Assembly: GCF_000379685.1 (NCBI RefSeq)
Contig: NZ_KB903291.1
Coordinates: 62,001-126,000 of the forward strand
Direction: 5' to 3'
DNA length: 64,000 bases
Origin: Catelliglobosispora koreensis DSM 44566
Lineage (GTDB): Bacteria; Actinomycetota; Actinomycetes; Mycobacteriales; Micromonosporaceae
Of the stretch, positions 19,736 through 62,807 are shown piece after piece; the stretch's first letter is position 1; the number at the start of each line of letters is the position of its first letter. The notes under the pieces are model-generated. The model was not told the origin of the DNA and did no database searches. It was given only the letters and a program-made list of their open reading frames with translations. Both the position numbers and the translations under genes were made by a program.

Positions 19736-19815
19736 TGGACGCGCGGACCTTGAGGGCCTCGCGGGAGGAACGGCCGTTACCACGGCGGACATCGGAAATC
19801 GGGTTAAGGCTCTTG
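19736..19815. repeat. Dispersed repeat Y, copy 1
   Basis: About 75 bp here match 61581-61655 with a few substitutions and two short gaps; the best block is GGCCTCGCGGGAGG followed by ACGGCCG, CCACG, CGGAC and TCGGAAAT. The right end runs over the stop codon of the patatin gene. Read on the minus strand both copies share the peptide pattern SISDVRRG-GR-SREA, so it may be a decayed coding fragment or a structured element. Confidence 0.65.
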
Positions 19816-51769: not shown

Positions 51770-52430
51770 CCAGAGCCTCGCGCGAGGCATGGTCAGCGAA
51801 ACGAGTGGTTTCGGGGAGACGGTAGCGCGGGGCTAGCTCAAGGGTGAGCGCGACCGACGTGTCCAGGTCGATCAGATGCCCAGCGGAGACGAAGACAGGC
51901 TTGACGCCGGGCTGTGTGCGCACGGCACGGCCGACGACTTCGCCCTCGTGCACGAGATCGGCGGTCGCGCCACGCTGCGGCGCAGGTTCACTGAACGTCC
52001 CCACGAAGGCGGTCTTCCCCACGCCGAAAGCCGCGATCCCTGTCACCACCCCGAGATGGCAGGCCAGGCCGAACCGGCGCGGATGGGCGATGCCGTAACC
52101 GTCACACACGAAGACGTCGGGAGTGACCGTCAGTTTCTTCATCGCCTCTAGCAGGATGGGCACTTCGCGAAAGCCCAGAAGGCCTGGGATGTAAGGGAAC
52201 TCGGCGGCTCCGGCGACGGTCACCAGCTCGGCCAGCTCCAGCGACGGGAACGCGAGCACGGCGATCGCCGCCACCAACCGGTCGTCACCGACGGCGTAGG
52301 ACACGTCCACGCCGGCGACCAGCTCCGGCGGCCTTGCCAGCCCTGTGCTCACGTCAACCCGCTCGCGCAGCGACTCTTGCAACGCGACGGCTTCGCTCTC
52401 GTTCACAGCGCCAAACCTAGCGCGGCTCAT
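51735..52430 (-). CDS. nfi: Endonuclease V (deoxyinosine repair)
   Basis: The 231-residue enzyme nicks DNA near deoxyinosine and some mismatches. Motifs are LVAGVDVSY with metal ligand D42, the strand-separating PYIPG (79-83), E89 in FREVP, and the second metal Asp D110 in VCDGYGIAHPRRFGLACHLG. I chose ATG at 52430, since upstream of it the frame runs through the 61-bp tandem repeat, which is not part of the family. It is divergent from ackA. Confidence 0.93.
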   Translation of the reverse strand: MSRARFGAVNESEAVALQESLRERVDVSTGLARPPELVAGVDVSYAVGDDRLVAAIAVLAFPSLELAELVTVAGAAEFPYIPGLLGFREVPILLEAMKKLTVTPDVFVCDGYGIAHPRRFGLACHLGVVTGIAAFGVGKTAFVGTFSEPAPQRGATADLVHEGEVVGRAVRTQPGVKPVFVSAGHLIDLDTSVALTLELAPRYRLPETTRFADHASREALVTQRLRSRPAA

Positions 52431-52450
52431 GCGCCATCCTCTGCGCGGCC

Positions 52451-52572
52451 TTCGCTCCTGCGACGCGACGTCTTCGCCCTCGTTCTCATCGCGGCTCACG
52501 CATACGCAGCCTTCGCTCCTGCGACGCGACGTCTTCGCCCTCGTTCTCATCGCGGCTCACGCATACGCAGCC
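52451..52572. repeat. 61-bp tandem repeat, two exact copies
   Basis: The unit starting TTCGCTCCTGCGACGCGACG and ending CATACGCAGCC occurs at 52451-52511 and 52512-52572 without change. A degenerate piece precedes it (GCGGCTCATGCG at about 52423) and a partial third copy starts at 52573. The 61-bp period is not a multiple of three, so it is unlikely to be coding. Confidence 0.9.
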
Positions 52573-52621
52573 TTCGCTACCGCCTGTGCTTCCTATTGCG
52601 AGGTTCGTGTAGGCGCTTCAT

Positions 52622-52708
52622 CGTGATCCACAGCCACGGGCGTGATCGACATCCCCGGAGGCGTGATCCACAGGCGGTTTGATCACGTCCCAGGGGATGT
52701 GGATCACG
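52622..52708. repeat. Dispersed stem-loop repeat X, copy 1
   Basis: This 87-bp element aligns without gaps to 61404-61490 at about 80% identity. It begins CGTGATCCACAGCC and can fold into two stacked stems: outer 52641-52656 with 52693-52708 (15 of 16 pairs) and inner 52660-52668 with 52681-52689. The 12-base loop ends in GCGGTTT. It lies about 75 bp before ackA. Confidence 0.8.
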
Positions 52709-52782
52709 CGTCGGGGCAAGCACGGACGATGGCGGGTGAAAGTCGGCCGCCCGCGTGGGCGTGGTCAGTTAAGGTCAATCAC

Positions 52783-53847
52783 GTGCGGGTGCTGGTGCTG
52801 AATTGTGGATCGTCCTCGGTCAAGTGGCGTCTGTTCGACGGCGAAGCCGCGCTGGCGGGTGGTCTCGTCGAGCGGGTCACCGACCACACGACGGCGCTGC
52901 GCCAGATTCTGGGCGAGGTCACTGACGTTCAAGCCGTCGGGCACCGCATGGTCCACGGTGGACTGCGGTTCAGCGCCCCGGCGCTCATTGACGACGAGGT
53001 CGTGGCCGCTGTTACCGAGCTGATTCCGCTGGCGCCGCTGCACAATCCGCCAAACCTGGCCGGGGTGAAGGTCGCCCGTGAGCTGATGCCCGGCATCCCT
53101 CAGGTCGCTGTCTTCGACACAGCGTTCCATCGCACGATCCCGCCCGTGAACGCGACCTACGCGATCGATGCGGCGACCGCGGCCGAGCACGGCATCGTGC
53201 GCTACGGCTTTCACGGCACGTCACATGCTTACGTATCAAGGAAAACCGCCGCCTTGCTCGGCAAGGATCCGGCTCACGTCAACGTGATCACCCTGCATCT
53301 CGGCAACGGCGCGAGTGCTTGCGCCGTCAAGGGTGGCCGCAGTTTCGCCACGTCCATGGGACTGTCGCCGTTGGAGGGACTCGTGATGGGCACCCGCAGC
53401 GGTGACATCGACCCGGCCATCGTCTTTCATTTGCACCGCGTCGCCGGGATGCCACTGGACGCTATCGAAACCATGCTCAATCGTCAGAGCGGACTGCGCG
53501 GTCTGTGCGGCGACAACGATATGCGGGAAGTCCTGAAGCGCAGAGAGTTTGGCGACGCCAGTGCCGCTTTGGCCTTCGACGTCTACACCGCCCGGATCAA
53601 GCAATACGTGGGGGCTTACTACGCCTTGCTTGGCCGGGTGGACGCGATCACGTTCACGGCCGGCGTCGGCGAAAATGCCCACGAGGTCAGGGTCGCCGCA
53701 CTGTCCGGATTGGACAGACTGGGCGTCAGCGTTGAGCGTGACGGCAAGGGCGTGATCTCTCCACCGGGGGCCGCGGTAGCGGTCTGTGTCGTGCCCACTG
53801 ACGAAGAGCAGGAGATCGCGACCCAGACCGCCGCCCTATTAGCGTGA
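52783..53847 (+). CDS. ackA: Acetate kinase
   Basis: The 354-residue enzyme phosphorylates acetate or makes ATP from acetyl phosphate. Motifs are VLVLNCGSSSVKW, GHRMVHGGLRF, FDTAFHRTIPP, YGFHGTSHAYV, VITLHLGNGAS, GLVMGTRSGDIDP and FTAGVGENAHEVR. It is about 40 residues shorter than typical AckA, mainly in the N-terminal region before GHRMVHGG; all active-site segments remain. The GTG at 52783 has AAGG 8 bp upstream. It works with pta encoded 1.7 kb upstream. The stop overlaps the convergent MDR gene by 9 bp. Confidence 0.95.
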   Translation: MRVLVLNCGSSSVKWRLFDGEAALAGGLVERVTDHTTALRQILGEVTDVQAVGHRMVHGGLRFSAPALIDDEVVAAVTELIPLAPLHNPPNLAGVKVARELMPGIPQVAVFDTAFHRTIPPVNATYAIDAATAAEHGIVRYGFHGTSHAYVSRKTAALLGKDPAHVNVITLHLGNGASACAVKGGRSFATSMGLSPLEGLVMGTRSGDIDPAIVFHLHRVAGMPLDAIETMLNRQSGLRGLCGDNDMREVLKRREFGDASAALAFDVYTARIKQYVGAYYALLGRVDAITFTAGVGENAHEVRVAALSGLDRLGVSVERDGKGVISPPGAAVAVCVVPTDEEQEIATQTAALLA

Positions 53848-54798
53848 GTGGTCGAGGACAATCTTGCCAAAGACGTCGCCACCGTTGAGGCGCTCAAAGG
53901 CGGCCCGTCCCTCGGTGAAGCCGTAGACACCGTCAACGATCGGGCTGATGCCCGTGCTCACGACCAAATCGAGCAGATCGGCGAGCTCCTGCCTAGTACC
54001 CATTGTTGATCCAATGATTTCTTGTTGCAGGAAGAAAACGCGGCGCAGGTCGACCGTGGCCTGGTGTCCTGAAGTGCTTCCGGACACGACGATGCGGCCA
54101 CCGGGCTTCGTGCTCTTGACCGAGTGGTCAAACGTGGCCGCGCCGACGGTCTCGATCACGACATCCACCCGCTCGGGCAGCCGTGCACCGGACTCAAAAG
54201 CTTGGGCCCCAAGGGCTTCGACGCGCTCGCGCTTGTCGGCGTCGCGGGAGGTCACGTAGACACGAGCGCCCATGGCGTGGGCCAGAACGGTCGCGGCGGT
54301 GGCTACGCCACCTCCCGCTCCCTGCACCAGCACACTGCCTTCCTTGGGCAACCGCCCCCTGGTCACCAGCATCCTGTAGGCGGTCAGCCAAGCGGTGGGA
54401 AAGCAAGCGGCGTCGGTGAACGACATCCCGGCGGGCTTGGGCACGACATTGCGCTTGGGCACGGCAACCAGGTCGGCCAGCGTTCCCGGATGCTTCTCGG
54501 ACAGGAGCGTCCGCTTTGGATCAAGGGTCTCGTCTTCACCCTCGCCGATGACGGCGTGCACCACTACCTCGTTGCCATTGGCGTCGATGCCCGCCGCGTC
54601 ACAGCCCAGGATCATGGGGACCTGTTCCTCGCTGAGCCCGACCCCGCGCAGCGACCACAGATCGTGGTGGTTGAGCGCACTCGCCTTGACCTGAACGATG
54701 GTCCAGCCCTCGGGAACCTGCGGTTCGGGCCGCTCCCCGACCACGAGACCGGCCAGTGGGTCATCAGGGTTGATCGATGAAGCGTAGATCGCGCGCAT
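53839..54798 (-). CDS. MDR-family NADP-dependent oxidoreductase
   Basis: The 319-residue protein is a medium-chain dehydrogenase/reductase of the zinc-independent quinone-oxidoreductase-like group. It has the GroES-like N-terminal part (VKASALNHHDLW, GCDAAG), the cofactor site VLVQGAGGGVATAATVLA, and KPGGRIVVSGSTSG. The zinc-ligand Cys residues of alcohol dehydrogenases are absent. The ATG at 54798 is the family-typical start MRAIYAS. It is divergent from the ECF sigma gene. The substrate is unknown. Confidence 0.88.
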   Translation of the reverse strand: MRAIYASSINPDDPLAGLVVGERPEPQVPEGWTIVQVKASALNHHDLWSLRGVGLSEEQVPMILGCDAAGIDANGNEVVVHAVIGEGEDETLDPKRTLLSEKHPGTLADLVAVPKRNVVPKPAGMSFTDAACFPTAWLTAYRMLVTRGRLPKEGSVLVQGAGGGVATAATVLAHAMGARVYVTSRDADKRERVEALGAQAFESGARLPERVDVVIETVGAATFDHSVKSTKPGGRIVVSGSTSGHQATVDLRRVFFLQQEIIGSTMGTRQELADLLDLVVSTGISPIVDGVYGFTEGRAAFERLNGGDVFGKIVLDHSR

Positions 54799-54828
54799 CC
54801 CTGACGCTAACATTCGGCGGGCCCGTGC

Positions 54829-54854
54829 AACCCCTGGCACGGGTGTGACGTATA
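54829..54854 (+). promoter_or_regulatory. Possible ECF-type promoter of the sigma-factor gene
   Basis: AAC at 54829-54831 (in GCAACCCC) and CGT at 54849-54851 (in CGTATA) are 17 bp apart, the spacing of ECF sigma promoters, about 25 bp before the sigma start. Self-activation would be usual for this class. Confidence 0.4.
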
Positions 54855-54878
54855 TGGCGTGAGCTGAAGGGAGACCGC

Positions 54879-55367
54879 ATGAGCTGGGAGTCTGATTTTG
54901 CCGAGTATTTCAGCGTCCGGGCTGTCTCATTACGCCGCGTCGCGTATGGGCTGTCCGGGGACTGGCACTTGGCTGAAGACCTGACTCAACACACGTTCTT
55001 GCAGCTGTATCGCCACTGGAAACGGCTGGATAAGTCGACGCTCGACGCCTATTCCAGGAAGACGCTCGTGAATGCGTTCCTATCGCACAAGCGGTCACGC
55101 AAGCGTGAGCAAATGATGGCTGAGGTGCCGGATCAGGCCGTGATGGCGGCGCAAAGCGCCGGTTTGGAGTTGCGGGAGGCACTAGACCTGCTGCCGCCCA
55201 AGCAACGCGCGCTGGTCGTGCTACGCCACCTGGAGGACATTTCCGTCGCTGAGGCTGCCGAGCTGCTGGGCATCGCTGAGGGAACGGTCAAGAGTCAAAC
55301 CGCCCGCGGCCTGGACAAGTTGCGTGCCGCGCTACGGACACCAGCATTCAATGGGGACCAGTCATGA
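54879..55367 (+). CDS. SigE-family ECF RNA polymerase sigma factor
   Basis: The 162-residue protein belongs to the actinobacterial SigE-type ECF sigma family. Region 2 contains LRRVAYGLSGDWHLAEDLTQ and YRHWKRLDK; region 4 contains LDLLPPKQRALVVLRHLEDI and AEGTVKSQTARGLDKLR. GAAGGGAG precedes the ATG. The last codons overlap the next gene by ATGA, which encodes a membrane protein that probably serves as its anti-sigma factor or sensor. Confidence 0.92.
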   Translation: MSWESDFAEYFSVRAVSLRRVAYGLSGDWHLAEDLTQHTFLQLYRHWKRLDKSTLDAYSRKTLVNAFLSHKRSRKREQMMAEVPDQAVMAAQSAGLELREALDLLPPKQRALVVLRHLEDISVAEAAELLGIAEGTVKSQTARGLDKLRAALRTPAFNGDQS

Positions 55368-56113
55368 AAGATGATCTGCAACGTTTCGTTCAGGATGGCG
55401 AACCGCCCATGGGGCTAAACGCTAACGCCATCATCAGCAAGGGCCGCCGGCAACGGCACGTTCGCCTCGGCTTGGGCCTAGGCACGGGCGCTCTCGCCAG
55501 TGCGCTCGCCTTTTCCAGCATCTTTCTCCTGCTTCCGCCCGGCGGAGAGGGCACACCCCCGTTTGGCTTCCCCACGCCTTCGCCGTCGTCTTCTGGTGCG
55601 GTGTGTGCGCTGCCAGCGGTGATTTCGACAGCGTCGCCTGACCCCACCATTTCCGTGCCGCCGGGAAACACGGCAGACGAGCTGAAGATCCGGCCAACCT
55701 ATGACTTCAAGGCCTGGGCCTCGGGCACGGGCAGCGACCTGAGCTGCTTCATGTATGGCTGGATGAAAACACAGCTGCCGCAGGCGGCCGCGGTGCCGGA
55801 CAAGCCGTGGAATGGCGTGCCGCCTTACGGTTTCGCCGCGGTCACCTCGGATGGCAAGGTGCGCTACGAGTCAGAGACACACGTCGGGGGTGGGCGGTTG
55901 TTCGTGACCGTTTGCCACGAGTCGGACTTCCCCCGGCCAGCAGACGTGCCGCAGACCGGGTTCGCCCACCGCGTCGAGTCTTTCGATGACGGGGCCTTCT
56001 TGTTCTACGCGTGGACAGGCACCACGTTTTTCCAGGTCGCGGGCAGCAGCCCGGTCACTCCGGAGATGTTGCTGGGCTTGGTTCAAGCTCCCGAGATGGA
56101 CGCCTTTAAGTAG
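55364..56113 (+). CDS. Membrane protein cotranslated with the ECF sigma factor
   Basis: The 249-residue protein has a short cytoplasmic N terminus of about 40 residues with a basic stretch (KGRRQRH), one transmembrane helix (about 44-62, LASALAFSSIFLLLPP), a Pro/Ser-rich linker, and an extracytoplasmic domain of about 150 residues with three Cys. The layout is that of an anti-sigma factor, but the cytoplasmic part is too short for a classical zinc anti-sigma domain, so the role is inferred from coupling. It overlaps the convergent hydrolase by 8 bp. Confidence 0.75.
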   Translation: MKDDLQRFVQDGEPPMGLNANAIISKGRRQRHVRLGLGLGTGALASALAFSSIFLLLPPGGEGTPPFGFPTPSPSSSGAVCALPAVISTASPDPTISVPPGNTADELKIRPTYDFKAWASGTGSDLSCFMYGWMKTQLPQAAAVPDKPWNGVPPYGFAAVTSDGKVRYESETHVGGGRLFVTVCHESDFPRPADVPQTGFAHRVESFDDGAFLFYAWTGTTFFQVAGSSPVTPEMLLGLVQAPEMDAFK

Positions 56114-56885
56114 CCTTCGTGGTTTGCAGGATGAGCGACGCGACCAGATCGGGGGCGTCGCTCATCGGCACATGCCCACAGTTGGGCAGTGTCTCGTGAC
56201 GGGCCTCCGGCAGCTTCTCAGCGGCTCGGGAAGCTTGATGTGGCAAGAAAATCCAGTCCTTCGCTCCCCAGGCGACCGTCACAGGAACCGTTGGCGTCCC
56301 GCCGAACTGGTAGTCCACGGAAGCTTTGACGACGGACTGATAACCCTTGCCCCGCCGCATCGCTAGAGCGTCTTCGTAGACACGTTGCAGCGCAAGACGA
56401 TCCGGGTAGGCAACGATGGGGCCGAAGGACAGCTTTCTGATCAGTGACGTGCGCAGCGCCACCTTCATGACCGGACCGGGCAGGAAAGTGTTGTAGCGCA
56501 TGGAAGTCAGGATGCGCAGGGCGCGTCTGCGCTCGGGCTCGTTGTAGAAGCCAGCGGGCGAGAACGCGGTGGCCGAGGATACGAGGCCGGCAGCGGCGAG
56601 CTCGAGCGCGATGGCGCCGCCGAGACTGTTGCCGGCCACGTGCGGCTTGTCGAGCCCTTCCTGCGCGAAGTATTCCCCCACCCGGGCGACGGTCTCGGCC
56701 ATGCCTTGGGGCATGCCACCGTCGGGCACCGGTGACTTGCCGAAGCCGGGCAGGTCGATCGCGATCACCTCGTGATGCGGGGCGAGAAGATCTAGTACCG
56801 GCTCCCACGCCTGCCACCGGTGCCCGATGCCGTGGATGAGCACTAGCGGCGTACCACTTCCCGCCTTGTGCGCGTTAACCAACAC
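56106..56885 (-). CDS. Alpha/beta-hydrolase of the oxidation cluster
   Basis: The 259-residue hydrolase has the oxyanion text LVLIHGIGHRWQAW, the nucleophile in VAGNSLGGAIALE, the acid strand VTVAWGAKDWIFLP and the His in LPNCGHVPMSD. The GTG at 56885 is the start that fits the family; it overlaps the end of the SDR gene by 11 bp, so translation is probably coupled. In a cluster with a Baeyer-Villiger-type monooxygenase it is well placed to cleave the ester or lactone product, which is inference. Confidence 0.86.
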   Translation of the reverse strand: MLVNAHKAGSGTPLVLIHGIGHRWQAWEPVLDLLAPHHEVIAIDLPGFGKSPVPDGGMPQGMAETVARVGEYFAQEGLDKPHVAGNSLGGAIALELAAAGLVSSATAFSPAGFYNEPERRRALRILTSMRYNTFLPGPVMKVALRTSLIRKLSFGPIVAYPDRLALQRVYEDALAMRRGKGYQSVVKASVDYQFGGTPTVPVTVAWGAKDWIFLPHQASRAAEKLPEARHETLPNCGHVPMSDAPDLVASLILQTTKAT

Positions 56886-57738
56886 TGTGCCTCCCAAAGG
56901 ACCGGCCGAGCCCACGCACTTCCTCTTCCATCTGCGGCACCAGGTCTTTACCCGCGCTGCGGGTGATGAGGCGGTCGCCCAAGCCGCTGAGCACCACGGT
57001 CCGCAGCGCTTGCATCAAGCCGATGGAACGGGGGATGAACACCCGCCGCTTGCGCTTTTCCAGCGCTTTGACGATCGCCGTGGCGCACTCTTCCACCGAG
57101 ATTTCCACCGAAGCCGGCCACGGCATCTTCTTGCGCGCGTGGCGATAACTCGGCAGGTCTTCCTTGAAGCCGCGTACCAGATCGGTGTTGATCCAAATTG
57201 GATGCGCTGTGCCCACACCGATGCCCAGGTGTTTGGTTTCCAGCCGCAGCACGTTGCCGAACTGTTCCACGCCGGCCTTGGACGCGCAGTAGGCGGCCAT
57301 TCCGGGCAGAGCGGTGAACGACGCGGCAGAGGCGATCAGCAGGGCATAACCCTTGCTGGTCTTCAGATGTGGCAGCGCCGCGCTGACGGTCCTGATGACG
57401 CCGTTGAGGTTGATGTCGATGGTGCGCACGATGGCCTCGACCGGGCATGTGTTCACGGTGCCGATGTTGGCCACGCCAGCGTTGGCCACGAGGTAGTCGA
57501 TGCCGCCATAGGCCTCCACCGTGGACGCGACAGCCAGGTCAAGGCCGGCCTGATCGGTCACGTCACACTCGAACCAGTGCGCGTTGAGCTCTTGGCCCAA
57601 TGCTTTCAGGCGCTCGGGCTCTAACCCAGCCAGCGCGACTTTAGCGCCTCTCGCGGCGGACAGTCTCGCGACCGCTTCACCAATGCCGCGGGCCGCGCCC
57701 GTGACGAAGACGGTCTTACCTTGCAGGGGTGAGTTCAC
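56875..57738 (-). CDS. Short-chain dehydrogenase of the oxidation cluster
   Basis: The 287-residue SDR has TGAARGIG (13-20), VANAG, and the catalytic Ser and YxxxK in YCASKAG. A C-terminal extension of about 60 residues (PRSIGLMQALRTVVLSGLGD onward) is typical of the SDRs found near FMO genes in actinobacteria. GGAG lies 7 bp before the GTG at 57738. The start lies inside the end of the FMO gene (23-bp overlap). It could oxidise an alcohol to the ketone that the monooxygenase then uses. Confidence 0.88.
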   Translation of the reverse strand: MNSPLQGKTVFVTGAARGIGEAVARLSAARGAKVALAGLEPERLKALGQELNAHWFECDVTDQAGLDLAVASTVEAYGGIDYLVANAGVANIGTVNTCPVEAIVRTIDINLNGVIRTVSAALPHLKTSKGYALLIASAASFTALPGMAAYCASKAGVEQFGNVLRLETKHLGIGVGTAHPIWINTDLVRGFKEDLPSYRHARKKMPWPASVEISVEECATAIVKALEKRKRRVFIPRSIGLMQALRTVVLSGLGDRLITRSAGKDLVPQMEEEVRGLGRSFGRHSVG

Positions 57739-59194
57739 GGCTCGCTCCAACGGGCGAATAGTCTTTGGCACGGAAACGCTTGAGCCGCAAGCGGAAAGTC
57801 GTGACGAATCCGGGCCACAGGGTCGAGTTGCGTCCAGTGGCGTCTAGATACCAGCTTTGGCAGCCGCCCGTGGACCACACGGTGCCTTCCATTTTGCGGT
57901 CCACTTCGAGCGAGTCGCGCAGCTGAGCGTCCGGAGTGGGCTCAATCGCGTGAATCTTGTTGCGCCGCATGTACTTCAGCGCCTTGATGATCTGGTTGAG
58001 CTGGCTCTCGATCTGGATGACGACCGAGGTGTGACCGAGTCCTGTGTTGGGCCCGAGCAGGAAGAACAGGTTAGGGAAACCAGCGACCGTGGTGCCGAGA
58101 TAGGCCCGCATGGTCGGATCCCACCGCTCGGCCAGGGTCTTGCCGTCACGGCCGCGGATGTGGTGCATCACCGGCATATCCGTGACGTGAAAGCCCGTGC
58201 CCAGGATGATGGTGTCCGCTTGGTGCTCAGAACCGTCAGCGGCAACGACCCGGTCTGGCTTGATGTGCGTGATCGCCGACGCGACAAGGGAAACGTTTGG
58301 CTTGCTGAACGTCGGCCACCAGTCATTGGACAGCAGCACCCGCTTACAGCCCAGGACATACTTCGGCGTCAGCTTGGCTCTTGTCACCGGATCCTTGACG
58401 TCTTTCTTGAGCGTCGCGAGCGCGATCTTCTGGCCGAACTTGTTCACCCTCGGGTGGAAGAAGCCAACTCCCATGAGTTCCCGGGTCCAGTAAAGGACTC
58501 CCCGGGTCAGACGTTGTGCTCCGGGGACATGGCGGTAAACGAAACGCTCCGCTTTGGTGATGCGGCGCGACATCCGGCGCATCGTCCACGCCGGTGTCCG
58601 CTGAAACACGGTGACGTGACCGGCTTTGGGCTGAATCGCTGGTACGAACTGAATCGCTGACGCTCCCGTGCCCACGACAGCGACGTTCTTTCCCGTCAGG
58701 TCATAGTCGTGCTGCCAGCGGGCCGAATGAAACACCTTGCCCTGGAAGCTGTCGAGCCCAGGGATGTCGGGAATGGACGGTTCGCTCAGTGGACCGGTGG
58801 CCGAAATCAGCACGCGCGCACGGTATTCGCCCTGCGACGTTTGCAGCACCCACTGCTGCTCCGCCTCATCCCACGCGGCGTTGGTGATGGCGTGGCCACA
58901 GCGCACGTGCGGGCGTACACCCTGGTGGTCTGCGGTTTTCAGGAGATAGTCCCAGATCTCCTGCTGCCCGGAGAACGTGTCGGACCAGTTGGGGTTGAGG
59001 GCGAACGAAAACGAGTAGAGGTGCGAAGGCACGTCGCAGGCACAGCCTGGATAGGTATTGTCCCGCCACGTTCCGCCAATCTCGTCCGCCTTCTCAAACA
59101 CGAGGAAGTCGGTAAACCCTTTCTGCCGCAAGCGGATGGCGGCACCGAGCCCGCCAAAGCCGGCCCCAATGATGGCGACATCGGTGTATGTCAT
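57716..59194 (-). CDS. Flavin-containing monooxygenase, Baeyer-Villiger type
   Basis: The 492-residue enzyme has the FAD motif GAGFGG (10-15), the BVMO fingerprint FQGKVFHSARW near residue 155, and the NADPH motif VGTGASAIQFVPAI. It would insert oxygen next to a ketone or oxidise a heteroatom, as EthA and MymA do in mycobacteria. The ATG at 59194 lies inside the stop of the small DUF4873-like gene. Its order with SDR and hydrolase suggests a ketone-to-ester-to-acid sequence. No natural substrate can be named. Confidence 0.92.
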   Translation of the reverse strand: MTYTDVAIIGAGFGGLGAAIRLRQKGFTDFLVFEKADEIGGTWRDNTYPGCACDVPSHLYSFSFALNPNWSDTFSGQQEIWDYLLKTADHQGVRPHVRCGHAITNAAWDEAEQQWVLQTSQGEYRARVLISATGPLSEPSIPDIPGLDSFQGKVFHSARWQHDYDLTGKNVAVVGTGASAIQFVPAIQPKAGHVTVFQRTPAWTMRRMSRRITKAERFVYRHVPGAQRLTRGVLYWTRELMGVGFFHPRVNKFGQKIALATLKKDVKDPVTRAKLTPKYVLGCKRVLLSNDWWPTFSKPNVSLVASAITHIKPDRVVAADGSEHQADTIILGTGFHVTDMPVMHHIRGRDGKTLAERWDPTMRAYLGTTVAGFPNLFFLLGPNTGLGHTSVVIQIESQLNQIIKALKYMRRNKIHAIEPTPDAQLRDSLEVDRKMEGTVWSTGGCQSWYLDATGRNSTLWPGFVTTFRLRLKRFRAKDYSPVGASRELTPAR

Positions 59195-59424
59195 ACTCGC
59201 ACTCCTCGAACGAGAACCCCGCCCCACGGATCAACTTCGGCCAGCCGCAGCGATATGCCGCCAAGCTTGACGACGCGCACCCCATTGCGCAGCAACGCCA
59301 CCACCGCTTCGTGCGGCTGAATCCGCCCGCTGACATGAACCTTGCCGTCGACCGGCTCAACCCGCTCGGTCAGCTCGACATCGACTTCGTATTCGCCGTG
59401 CGCACTTTCCAGTAAGAGCTTCAT
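59191..59424 (-). CDS. DUF4873-like small protein
   Basis: The 77-residue protein (YEVDVELTERVEPVDGKVHV, then HEAVVALLRNGVRVVKLGG and LAEVDPWGGVLVRGV) resembles DUF4873, a beta-rich domain often fused to or next to FMO-type monooxygenases in actinobacteria. It overlaps the FMO start by ATGA, so the two are made together. Function unknown; a partner or substrate-binding role is plausible. Confidence 0.7.
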   Translation of the reverse strand: MKLLLESAHGEYEVDVELTERVEPVDGKVHVSGRIQPHEAVVALLRNGVRVVKLGGISLRLAEVDPWGGVLVRGVRV

Positions 59425-59554
59425 GTCCGACGCTCGCCGTGGTCCAGACCGTCCCTCCCACGAGGGCCGGCGACGGCTGCGGAGCAGCTTCGGCGCCGCA
59501 CGATAGGACAGCGCGAAGCACCTTCTTTTTCTCCGCGCGTCCCAAGCTCGCCGG

Positions 59555-60211
59555 TCATGGTGCCGCCCTTTCCGCCGGCGCCGCGAAGCTGGCCGGCATA
59601 TCAGCTGCGGCTTTCACACCCTCGATGCCGTGCCATAGCAACGTGGTTAGGTAGTCGGTGAGGGCCTCGCGGCGCATGGGCCGGTTGCGTGCCATCCACC
59701 AGTCGCCCACGGTTTGCACGAGCCCGACGATCCCGACCGCCCATGGCTCGGCCGGCCCGGCGTCGAGCCCGAGGGCGCGCAGCCGGTCACCGATCACCCG
59801 CGACAGTCCAGTCGCGACAGTCTGCGAAGCGCCGTTGATGAGGTGATGCACGCCCGGGACGTCGGCTTTCATGAGGCAGCGGTAAAGCTCGGCCTGATCC
59901 TCGATCGCCCCGAGGTACGCGTCGATGGTGGCCGCGATCAGCTCCCGTTCCTCGCGAACGGACTCGATCGCCGGCGTCACGACCGCGAGCACCTGCTGTG
60001 CCACGAATTCACCGACCGCCAGCCAGAGCTGGGTTTTGTCCGCGAAATAGCGGTACAGCACCGGTTTGCTGACCCCGGCGACCTTAGCCACCTGGTCCAT
60101 GTCCACCGAGGGTCCATAGTGGACAGCCGCCTCGATGGCGGCACCAATCAGCTCAAGCCGGCGATTCTCGCGATGCTCGGCCCATCTCTGTTTTCTGGCA
60201 TTGACTTGCAC
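59555..60211 (-). CDS. TetR-family regulator of the oxidation cluster
   Basis: The 218-residue regulator has a TetR HTH (RRLELIGAAIEAAVHYGPSV, then DQVAKVAGVSKPVLYRYFAD) and a C-terminal ligand domain. The GTG at 60211 is the start nearest the conserved region and leaves the operator free; longer frames would read through it. The site between it and the divergent diiron oxygenase gene is a 27-bp inverted repeat. It heads the minus-strand genes for the DUF4873-like protein, FMO, SDR and hydrolase, 130 bp further on. Confidence 0.9.
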   Translation of the reverse strand: MQVNARKQRWAEHRENRRLELIGAAIEAAVHYGPSVDMDQVAKVAGVSKPVLYRYFADKTQLWLAVGEFVAQQVLAVVTPAIESVREERELIAATIDAYLGAIEDQAELYRCLMKADVPGVHHLINGASQTVATGLSRVIGDRLRALGLDAGPAEPWAVGIVGLVQTVGDWWMARNRPMRREALTDYLTTLLWHGIEGVKAAADMPASFAAPAERAAP

Positions 60212-60213
60212 GA

Positions 60214-60240
60214 TACTTTTCGTAACAGTTACGAGAAGTA
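60214..60240. promoter_or_regulatory. Inverted repeat, probable TetR operator
   Basis: TACTTTTCGTAA-CAG-TTACGAGAAGTA has 12-bp arms with 11 matches. It fills the 47-bp gap between the TetR start (60211) and the diiron oxygenase start (60259), so one repressor dimer pair could control both. Confidence 0.8.
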
Positions 60241-60258
60241 ACGTCAAGGGAGGACGAC

Positions 60259-61137
60259 ATGATCCCTCGGGAGCAAACCGCGGAACGGCTGCTCCAGGTC
60301 TCACTGCGCAACCAGTACGACCCCCTGATAGACATTGATTGGGATGCCCCGCTCGACCCGGACAGGTTCTGGATTCCGCCCACGCGAAGCAGCCTTTATG
60401 GCACGTCCTTGTGGGACGGTCTCACCCACGCGCAGCGGGTGGAGCTGACCAAACACGAGGTGACCAGTGCCGCGTCGGCAGGGCTGTGGTTCGAAACGAT
60501 CCTGATGGAGATGCTGATCAGGTTCTACTACGACGCCGACCCGACGACACAGCACGCGCAATACGCCCTGACCGAGGTCGCCGATGAGTGCCGGCACAGC
60601 ATCATGTTCGGGCGGCTGATCTCGCGTGCGGGCACCCCGGTCTATCCACCGTCCAAAGTGGACCATGCGCTCGGCAAGTTCTTAAAAGCCACCGCTACTG
60701 GACCGCACATGTATGCGGCGATCCTCATCGCCGAGGAAATCCTCGACGCGTTCCAGCGTGAAATCATGAGCGACGAAACGCTACAGCCCTTGATCCGCAT
60801 GGTTTCCCGGGTTCACGTGATCGAAGAAGCGCGTCACATCAAGTTCGCCCGCGAGGAACTGGTTCGCCAGGTCGAAGCGGCCGGACCGGTGCGCTTGGCT
60901 TACTCGCGCGTTGTCATCGCAAGAGCGGCATACTCCGTGGCCACCCGTCTCGTGCATCCCCAAGCCTACGAAGCGGTCGGCATCCCGGCAGCAGTCGGTT
61001 CCAAAGCCGCCCGAGCGAACCCACACTTCCGCTCCACCCTGAAATGGGCGGCCTCGCGCATCACGCCAACGTTATTGGAACTAGGCCTGATCGGCGGCCC
61101 CAGCCGTCTCCTATGGACCCGCGCCGGCCTGCTCTAA
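60259..61137 (+). CDS. AurF-like diiron oxygenase
   Basis: The 292-residue helical protein matches the p-aminobenzoate N-oxygenase (AurF) type of ferritin-like diiron enzymes. Iron ligands come from four helices: the Glu of GLWFETILMEML, EVADECRHSIMF, IAEEILDAFQRE and VHVIEEARHIKFAREE. In known members the substrate is an arylamine or a fatty-acid-like compound; mycobacterial relatives have no assigned substrate. It is divergent from the TetR gene and shares its operator. Two TTA leucine codons, rare in such genomes, occur in it (in FLKA and TLLE). Confidence 0.88.
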   Translation: MIPREQTAERLLQVSLRNQYDPLIDIDWDAPLDPDRFWIPPTRSSLYGTSLWDGLTHAQRVELTKHEVTSAASAGLWFETILMEMLIRFYYDADPTTQHAQYALTEVADECRHSIMFGRLISRAGTPVYPPSKVDHALGKFLKATATGPHMYAAILIAEEILDAFQREIMSDETLQPLIRMVSRVHVIEEARHIKFAREELVRQVEAAGPVRLAYSRVVIARAAYSVATRLVHPQAYEAVGIPAAVGSKAARANPHFRSTLKWAASRITPTLLELGLIGGPSRLLWTRAGLL

Positions 61138-61139
61138 CC

Positions 61140-61340
61140 CTGTCCCTACCCCGCCTGTCCCTACCCCGCCTGTCCCTACCCCGCCTGTCCCTACCCCGCC
61201 TGTCCGCCTCTGCCCCTGTCGGCCTTGCCCCTGTCGCTGTCCCCGCAACTGCAACTGCCCTGTGCCTGCCTCTTGCAACTGCCCCTGTCCCTGCCTGCCC
61301 TGCCCTACCTCTGTCCCCGCAACTGCAACGCCCCTGCCTG
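61140..61340. repeat. C-rich low-complexity tract with 15-bp tandem repeats
   Basis: CTGTCCCTACCCCGC is repeated four times without change (61140-61199). Degenerate CTGCC/CTGTCC units follow, including a 19-bp exact direct repeat starting CTGTCCCCGCAACTG at 61237 and 61311. The plus strand is strongly pyrimidine-rich. It starts right after the stop of the AurF-like gene. Confidence 0.9.
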
Positions 61341-61403
61341 CCGGCATCGACGTTGCGCGGCGCGGCGCCTCGCTGCAGGGCTCTACTTGGAGCCTCACTT
61401 AGT

Positions 61404-61490
61404 CGTGATCCACAGCCCTACCCGAGATCCACATCCGTTGAGACGTGATCGAAAAGCGGTTTGATCACGTCTCACGGGATGTGGATCAGC
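61404..61490. repeat. Dispersed stem-loop repeat X, copy 2
   Basis: This is the ungapped 87-bp partner of 52622-52708. The inner stem is perfect over 12 bp (61439-61450 with 61463-61474), the outer stem pairs 61426-61436 with 61477-61487, and the 12-base loop ends in GCGGTTT as in copy 1. Confidence 0.8.
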
Positions 61491-61580
61491 AAAGGCCCGG
61501 GATGCGCGGAGAAATCAAAGCGCTCCGCGCCGTCCCATCGTGCGGCGCAGCAGGCAGGATCGCGCGGCGCAGCACGGCAG

Positions 61581-61652
61581 GGATGCGCGGACATGGCGGC
61601 CTCGCGGGAGGGACGGCCGAGACCACGACGGACGTCGGAAATAGAAAGGCTC

Positions 61653-61655
<3 letters not shown>
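61581..61655. repeat. Dispersed repeat Y, copy 2
   Basis: This stretch matches 19736-19815. Like copy 1 it lies directly at the 3' end of a minus-strand gene, here touching the stop codon of malic enzyme. Conserved blocks are GGCCTCGCGGGAGG, ACGGCCG, ACGGACGTCGGAAAT and AAGGCTCTT. Confidence 0.65.

Positions 61656-62807
<1,152 letters not shown>

What the first reader, a model, noticed from the sequence alone, without database searches (positions are those of the whole stretch)
52622..61490. Dispersed two-tier stem-loop element X with conserved loop
Two 87-bp copies (52622-52708 and 61404-61490) align without gaps at about 80% identity. Both keep the same architecture: a 5' CGTGATCCACAGCC segment, an outer GATC-ACATCC stem, an inner CGTGATC/GATCACG stem and a 12-base loop ending GCGGTTT. 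Substitutions often preserve pairing. One lies upstream of ackA, the other between convergent genes. This suggests a structured RNA or a non-autonomous mobile element that is not a known insertion sequence.
Basis: seen in the sequence. Interest (0 to 1): 0.65.

Follow-up and report, generated by a model that had tools for sequence, protein, structure and literature searches.

The report
Genome-specific palindromic mobile DNA repeat family
The two look-alike stem-loops belong to a family of roughly 75-90 palindromic DNA repeats seen in this bacterium's genome only, which look like old miniature mobile elements recognised as DNA rather than a folded RNA; their mover and function are unknown.

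Summary
Both 87-bp copies are present, align without gaps (79% identical) and fold far better than shuffles. They belong to a family of 74 type I copies plus about 14 of a cousin (type II) in the window's own 7.69-Mb genome. It was not found, beyond scattered single chance-like matches, in 353 other genomes of the family, 396 of the order, or viral, plasmid and phage collections.

The RNA interpretation fails. Over 74 copies the arms pair no better than when dealt at random between copies (82.7% against 83.6%). Conserved instead are GATC boxes (GTGATC-nACA-kCC) on a 19-21-16-21 bp ruler with free spacers. The element is polar: an extra box at one end, a loop in either orientation (29:28), and a G/purine-rich, tandem-repeat-prone tract beyond the other end. 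Copies favour convergent intergenic regions (31 of 65, about 10% expected). One sits in frame in a TPR gene within a 138-bp insertion that 14 of 14 compared homologues lack.

Best reading: an old, lineage-specific, non-autonomous palindromic mobile element (MITE/REP-like), read as duplex or hairpin DNA by a lost or unidentified enzyme. No target duplication, RAYT gene or end tag was found, and the partner search was incomplete, so it is filed in no named family.

The parts
52616..52708 (+). Type I element, copy 1 (one-sided: extra box on the left)
52616..52622 (+). Outer end CTTCATC of copy 1 (family end CTTnRTC; its inverse complement ends the other side in two-sided copies)
   Evidence: sequence; profile of one-sided copies
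52623..52635 (+). Box A1 GTGATCCACAGCC (extra unit)
52642..52654 (+). Box A2 GTGATCGACATCC, 19 bp after A1
52660..52689 (+). Inner hairpin GGCGTGATC-CACAGGCGGTTT-GATCACGTC, GATC 21 bp after that of A2, inverted GATC 16 bp further
52695..52707 (-). Box A2' (GGATGTGGATCAC on +), GATC 21 bp after the inverted GATC
61398..61490 (+). Type I element, copy 2 (extra box on the left; between convergent genes)
61405..61417 (+). Box A1 GTGATCCACAGCC of copy 2, preceded by the end CTTAGTC at 61398-61404
61424..61436 (+). Box A2 GAGATCCACATCC of copy 2
61440..61473 (+). Inner hairpin GAGACGTGATC-GAAAAGCGGTTT-GATCACGTCTC of copy 2
61476..61488 (-). Box A2' of copy 2 (GGGATGTGGATCA on +)
52444..52578 (.). 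61-bp tandem repeat (2.2 copies) next to copy 1
61080..61350 (-). Strand-biased (C/T-rich on +, G/A-rich on -), tandem-repeat-laden tract next to copy 2
61537..61590 (.). 22-bp tandem repeat (2.4 copies) on the other side of copy 2

Best explanation
A lineage-specific family of small non-autonomous palindromic DNA elements (about 93 bp one-sided, about 118 bp two-sided), now mostly old and diverged. Shown: dispersal to about 85 places in one genome; flanks that are mostly unrelated from copy to copy; a fixed ruler of GATC boxes; a polar end structure with the loop in either orientation; presence inside an in-frame insertion in one gene; a purine/G-rich, tandem-repeat-prone tract on the side without the extra box. 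Inferred: an enzyme now lost or unrecognised bound the phased GTGATCnACA boxes, or the hairpin they form in single-stranded DNA, and copied or pasted the element. The loop's two orientations suggest that the stem-loop was opened and rejoined as DNA, like flip and flop of a hairpin end. Intergenic space at gene 3' ends tolerates the insertions, so they survive there. Slippage or repair at the hairpin may have grown the neighbouring tandem repeats.
For: Copies: 74 type I and about 14 type II places. Other genomes: at most 2 matches in each of 353 of the family, against 119 in the own genome; at most 3 in each of 396 of the order, against 162. Insertion: in TPR protein P0001, 46 residues that include the core are absent from 14 of 14 compared homologues: 11, one of them (L136) poorly aligned, and 3 more (search). 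DNA-level recognition: no covariation; the 19-21-16-21 ruler is intact in 52 of 57 one-sided copies, and the other 5 have lost a GATC with the remaining spacing kept. At least one extra box is nearly always kept: left 29, right 28, both 14, none 3. Polarity and loop orientation. Convergent bias: 31 of 65 against 9.8% by length; 32 of 67 against 10.2% in a regional control. Flank tract: GC skew >= 0.35 in 44% of 55 flanks, against 0.7% of 7980 control windows (either sign) and 1.3% of 223 windows of nearby intergenic DNA. Tandem arrays in 30 of 70 and 21 of 74 flanks, against 17 of 1320 control windows.
Against: No autonomous partner was found, and the search for one was partial: of 274 boxes with up to 1 mismatch, 240 lie in the element places, 6 elsewhere in the fetched loci and 28 in DNA that was not fetched, against about 11 expected. 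Of 9 type I pairs closer than 10 kb, reading frames were looked at between 3, and no transposase was seen there. The only Y1 transposase match in the genome is an 85-aa remnant. No target-site duplication was defined: the best direct repeat at the TPR insertion is 6 bp, chance level. That insertion (138 bp) is longer than the 66-bp core, and its extra DNA was not matched to other copies. No second genome of the genus is held, so no DNA-level empty site could be shown, and one gene carries the insertion argument. Mean identity is 81%, best pair 98.5% over 66 columns, so recent movement is not shown.
Confidence: 0.6

Rival explanations
1. A binding-site array for a host chromosomal protein (nucleoid-associated, segregation or replication-control protein). 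The phased GATC boxes are the functional unit, kept by selection at scattered sites.
For: Box sequence and 19-21-16-21 spacing are rigid while the 5-nt spacers are free. By eye only two copies lack an extra box, and both overlap genes (C1:357584, C2:321297). Density differs between contigs (chi-square 44.5, simulated p 0.001), and no listed element lies within about 185 kb of dnaA at C13:315662.
Against: Not found in the relatives searched, unexpected for a core chromosomal function. One copy is inside an insertion in a coding gene. Flanks are mostly unrelated between copies.
Confidence: 0.17
2. Bidirectional transcription terminators or mRNA 3'-end stabilisers, perhaps Rho-assisted: a C-rich inward strand followed by a strong hairpin, placed between convergent genes.
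For: Tenfold odds for convergent intergenic regions. Strong hairpin on both strands. The strand running into the hairpin is C-rich and G-poor.
Against: No T-run; the terminator scan listed none at either copy's hairpin and its total of 8 is near the shuffled mean of 5.8. The flank skew is the same whether the neighbouring gene points at the element or away (0.34 and 0.35). 28 of 65 copies are in tandem and 6 in divergent regions. Pairing is not maintained. The bias also fits insertion tolerance.
Confidence: 0.13
3. A structured non-coding RNA or cis-regulatory RNA family.
For: Stable, unusual fold in the two window copies; fully paired 5-nt spacers are somewhat commoner within copies (8 of 74) than across copies (5.0%).
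Against: Covariation at or below shuffled level in 40 and in 74 copies. The loop lies in either orientation. Best Rfam match in the stretch is 26 bits against a gathering score of 70. No fixed relation to gene strand.
Confidence: 0.05

Closest known systems
[quoted passage not shown] review PMC10969869, two passages seen, otherwise recalled)
   Same: Small, non-coding, inverted-repeat structure, many dispersed intergenic copies, occasional in-frame fusion with genes
   Different: No target-site duplication defined and no autonomous transposon with matching ends found (search incomplete); an array of phased boxes round a hairpin whose loop lies either way, rather than two terminal repeats round a filler
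REP / BIME / REPIN elements with RAYT transposases (PMC3733652 and PMC3116915; passages seen)
   Same: Dispersed extragenic palindromes, paired subtypes at short distance (type I with type II), hairpins in single-stranded DNA
   Different: No GTAG; CGTC occurs only inside the inner stem, paired with GACG, not as an end tag; about three times longer; no RAYT gene found in the genome. 'Actinobact' occurs 0 times in PMC3733652; PMC12306157 (passages) does count REPs, by its own criteria, in three other Actinomycetota
Rickettsia palindromic elements (RPE; one passage of PMC10969869)
   Same: Palindromic elements of about 150 bp found in frame inside protein genes
   Different: Here 3 of 74 copies were seen to overlap a likely coding frame; RPEs are said there to be in genes unusually often
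Intrinsic or Rho-dependent terminators (recalled)
   Same: Hairpin between convergent genes, C-rich approach strand
   Different: No T-run, no strand logic relative to genes, sequence rather than pairing conserved

Membership tests
MITE | Short, no coding capacity of its own, many dispersed copies | tested here: met
MITE | Terminal inverted repeats | tested here: inconclusive
   extra end box inverted at both ends in 14 of 74, one-sided in 57 of 74
MITE | Target-site duplication | tested here: inconclusive
   only a 6-bp direct repeat, chance level, at the one mapped insertion
MITE | Ends shared with an autonomous transposon | tested here: inconclusive
   none seen, but 28 of 274 boxes lie in unfetched DNA and only 3 of 9 close element pairs were inspected for reading frames
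REP/REPIN with RAYT | GTAG (or CGTC) tetranucleotide as an end tag of the stem | tested here: not met
   no GTAG in the profiles of 29 and 26 copies; CGTC is inside the paired inner stem, not at an element end
REP/REPIN with RAYT | RAYT (Y1 transposase) gene in the genome, flanked by the repeats | tested here: not met
   one PF01797 match, an 85-aa remnant, not at an element place
Structured RNA family | Base pairs kept by compensatory change | tested here: not met
   82.7% of cells paired against 83.6% in shuffles; 498 of 500 shuffles at least as high
Structured RNA family | Discrete transcript | not testable with these tools
   no RNA data available
Intrinsic terminator | GC-rich hairpin followed by a T-run | tested here: not met
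   and the sequence (the two window copies only)
Rickettsia palindromic element | Frequent in-frame insertion in protein genes | tested here: not met
   3 of 74 type I copies seen to overlap a likely coding frame; one shown as an insertion against homologues

The most novel reading that the evidence does not exclude
A new class of mobile palindrome that spreads without a RAYT or a terminal-repeat transposase. A phased array of GATC boxes is extruded or copied as hairpin DNA, its loop is resolved in either orientation (flip/flop), and polar repair at its open end lays down a strand-biased, G-rich tandem-repeat tract that lengthens its intergenic regions several-fold.
Probability: 0.15. Interest if true: 0.8.

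Novelty: new variant of a known kind. Interest (0 to 1): 0.45.

Why it matters
No description of this family turned up in the listings searched. Its anatomy is unusually readable: a rigid box ruler, a loop in either orientation and a polar repeat-prone tract, which narrow the mechanism more than the usual 'dispersed repeat' label does. If an enzyme that reads it is found, it would add a route for non-autonomous palindromes besides RAYTs and MITE transposases. It also cautions against calling conserved stem-loops RNA: here the conserved fold comes from conserved DNA boxes.

Tried and rejected
Structured RNA: rejected after covariation tests on 40 BLAST-chosen copies and then on all 74 type I copies, to lessen the bias of that choice. 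Against this: fully paired 5-nt spacers are a little commoner within copies (8 of 74) than across copies (5.0%), while mean spacer pairing is lower (2.41 against 2.64 of 5).

RAYT/REP: rejected for lack of end tag and gene. DnaA-box array (TGATCCACA resembles TTATCCACA; recalled): set aside because the inner pair keeps GTGATC, not CACA. Integron attC sites: considered from memory only, not tested. Intrinsic terminators: rejected for the two window copies. Target-site duplication at the TPR insertion: only a 6-mer. A second insertion test (L043, C-terminal tail encoded by the element) was uninformative because homologues' C-termini vary. A third coding overlap (L102) was not compared with homologues.

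Matches elsewhere, told in full: at up to 2 mismatches 142 of 396 other genomes of the order have 1-3 pattern matches and 34 of 353 of the family have 1-2, while the reversed-pattern control is nearly always 0; so the patterns are somewhat commoner than the control. Seven of the family matches were read. Five genomes of one genus share a single hairpin in near-identical surroundings, without the GATC boxes, and the other two have no boxes either. The rest were not inspected.

Limits: the gene caller was a simple codon-usage script trained on the window. The position-weight matrix and covariance model came from 40 copies most like copy 1. The covariance scan of the own genome was capped at 150 scored matches; the pattern scan listed 79 distinct places with up to 1 mismatch, all among the 85, but more diverged copies could be missed. 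Box and place lists show the first 100 rows only. The 400-kb control came from 20 round-number stretches and held no element, so a regional control was added. Nine of 74 copies (inside genes, or without a gene call on one side) were left out of the context test; one-sided copies only (57, or 55 with enough flank) were used for the flank tract. Searches used different scripts and gave 28/28/15/3 and 29/28/14/3; the third 'none' in each (C4:103642, C2:423290) has a degenerate extra box by eye. The collections may leave out the window's own and very near genomes. Papers were seen as listings, and as passages for PMC3733652, PMC12306157, PMC10969869 and PMC3116915; none was read whole.
Full report
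WHAT WAS CHECKED. They align without gaps over 87 bp at 79.3% identity and fold far better than shuffles. A BLAST search of the window's own genome (G000, 7,686,688 bases in 44 contigs; window = C42:62001-126000) gave 78 matches, counting both strands of the palindrome. A covariance model gave 150 scored matches, its cap. A pattern scan of the hairpin gave 119 matches, none in the reversed control. Fetching these places and scanning them gave 85 distinct places: 74 of the window's kind (type I) and 11 of a cousin (type II). Three more type II copies were read by eye, about 14 in all. The 79 distinct places listed with up to 1 mismatch are all among the 85.

ANATOMY. Read from the end with the extra box, type I is: CTTnRTC - GTGATCCACAkCC (A1) - 6 nt - GTGATCCACAkCC (A2) - 5 nt - GACGTGATC - 12-nt loop - GATCACGTC - 5 nt - GGmTGTGGATCAC (A2'). 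Successive GATCs are 19, 21, 16 and 21 bp apart. Of 57 one-sided copies 46 show exactly this, 6 more show it with an additional GATC, and 5 have lost one GATC with the other distances kept (recounted from its list). The extra box is left of the loop in 29, right in 28, on both sides in 14 and absent in 3 of 74; another script gave 28, 28, 15 and 3. By eye only two copies lack it, and both overlap genes. Independent loss at the two sides would leave about 13 copies with none, so an extra box seems needed. Everything else in the element has one polarity while the loop lies either way, so the central loop is inverted in about half the copies (profiles of 29 and 26 copies, two with short flanks dropped).

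NOT AN RNA FOLD. In 40 copies, and then in all 74, covariation measures are about at or below shuffles that re-deal the 3' arms among copies: in the 74, 82.7% of cells paired against 83.6%, 498 of 500 shuffles at least as high. The structure does exceed slid versions, as expected since the consensus itself is palindromic. The five spacer pairs between the two tiers pair slightly less within than across copies (2.41 against 2.64 of 5), though fully paired spacers are somewhat commoner (8 of 74, against 5.0%). A slight avoidance of perfect pairing would fit the known instability of long perfect palindromes (recalled). The best Rfam match in 52400-61900 is a microRNA family at 26 bits, gathering score 70.

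DISTRIBUTION. In 396 other genomes of the order no genome has more than 3 pattern matches, against 162 in the own genome; in 353 others of the family none has more than 2, against 119. Single matches, mostly at 2 mismatches, do occur, in 142 of 396 and 34 of 353 genomes; seven of the latter were read and none has the boxes. By BLAST none of 40 relatives matched. Exact patterns gave nothing in the genome collection or viral contigs, and BLAST nothing in plasmids or phages. Only this genome of its genus is held.

EVIDENCE FOR INSERTION. One copy (C1:357584) lies in frame in a TPR-repeat gene (L084:2101-3411, minus strand; protein P0001, 436 aa). All 11 homologues first compared, from 10 other genomes, lack 46 residues (138 bp) there; one of them, L136, aligns poorly. 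Three more were then checked, including one that the search had aligned across the place and a paralogue in the own genome; all three lack it too. The insertion holds the 66-bp core plus about 72 bp. A 6-bp direct repeat flanks it, at chance level. Two more copies overlap the 3' parts of likely coding frames (L043, L102); L043 was not informative and L102 was not compared. Among the flanks of the 57 one-sided copies, a BLAST of all against all gave ten matches: most are another repeat (family Y), two are one related pair of composite loci, and one is 24 bp long.

SURROUNDINGS. Copies prefer regions between convergent genes: 31 of 65 classifiable type I copies, against 9.8% by length in a 400-kb control (p 6e-15). 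With other intergenic regions of the same loci as control it is 32 of 67, against 10.2% by length. Regions with an element are long (median 603 bp against 157), in part perhaps because longer regions are likelier targets. On the side without the extra box, the first 50 bp of the outward strand are 49% G, 66% purine and 9% T; the GC skew is 0.35 or 0.34 whether the next gene runs with or against it. Skew of 0.35 or more is found in 44% of 55 flanks, against 0.7% of 7980 control windows and 1.3% of 223 windows of nearby intergenic DNA. Tandem arrays occur in 30 of 70 flanks on that side and 21 of 74 on the other, against 17 of 1320 control windows. In the window, 6 of the 9 tandem-repeat rows lie beside or in the two copies. 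Copy 2's strongest tract is on its extra-box side, so the polarity is a tendency.

TYPE II. It has the same boxes round a CCCGAAAAGGGTGATC core. Of 8 type II cores listed by the genome-wide pattern scan at up to 1 mismatch, 7 lie within 240 bp of a type I; over all 14 seen it is 13, but those loci were mostly fetched for their type I copies. This recalls the pairing of REPs in dimers (PMC3733652, passages).

PARTNER. Of 274 boxes with up to 1 mismatch (11 in the reversed control), 240 lie in the element places, 6 elsewhere in fetched loci and 28 in unfetched DNA, so a partner with such ends is not excluded. Nine type I pairs are closer than 10 kb; reading frames were listed between three of them. 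One pair (contig C7, 1.1 kb apart, extra boxes facing inward) frames a 322-aa protein with AbiEi_4 and DUF559 matches (nuclease-like, recalled). It has no relative in the other fetched loci, so this is only a lead. The other two pairs frame no transposase recognisable by eye. The one Y1 transposase match in the genome is an 85-aa remnant.

MECHANISM. The best-supported reading is a small palindromic mobile element that a trans-acting enzyme recognised through phased boxes or a DNA hairpin. Shown: dispersal, mostly unrelated flanks, one insertion, fixed ruler, loop either way, repeat-prone polar flank. Inferred: the enzyme, the hairpin intermediate, and growth of the tracts by slippage or repair. 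Termination and protein-binding functions remain open and do not exclude mobility.

COMPARISON. It works like a MITE or a REP/BIME, but tested defining features of RAYT-linked REPs (end tag, gene) are not met, and the target duplication and partner of a MITE are not shown. It resembles Rickettsia palindromic elements in its in-frame copy, not in frequency inside genes. It is therefore reported as a new variant of the palindromic repeat kind, not as a member of a named family. That it is undescribed rests on the searches only.

Noticed in passing
window 61591-61665 (+), 19755-19814 (+), 59413-59465 (-): A second dispersed repeat (family Y, about 45-70 nt, GGCCTCGCGGGAGGGACGGTCGnnACCACGGCGGACATCGGAAAT): 3 in the window and 24 matches in 21 further fetched loci, none in the 400-kb control (my note misstates this count).
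   Followed up: partly
L088, L021, L033, L094, L024, L098, L077, L086, L097, L016, L032, L040, L099, L101: Type II palindrome (CCCGAAAAGGGTGATC core) that lies within 240 bp of a type I copy in 13 of the 14 seen.
   Followed up: partly
L083 243-1211 (+), contig C7: A 322-aa protein with AbiEi_4 and DUF559 matches lies between two type I copies 1.1 kb apart whose extra boxes face it; a possible lead for a partner enzyme.
   Followed up: partly
L048 1486-1743 (-): An 85-aa remnant matching the C-terminal part of Y1 (IS200-like) transposases, the only such match in the genome.
   Followed up: partly
L157-L161: Five genomes of another genus share one conserved hairpin GTGATCCRCTGTCATYTTGATCAC in near-identical surroundings, without GATC boxes.
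   Followed up: partly
window 52642: The ackA reading frame stays open into copy 1, so an automatic gene call may start ackA inside the element; the likely start is near 52789.
   Followed up: no
G000 contig C13, dnaA at 315662: No listed element lies within about 185 kb of dnaA, and contigs differ in density (C4 and C23 high, C34 and C40 low).
   Followed up: partly
starts of contigs C1, C7, C11, C44 and the end of C4: Elements lie within about 500 bp of several contig ends, so the assembly may break in their repeat-rich flanks.
   Followed up: no
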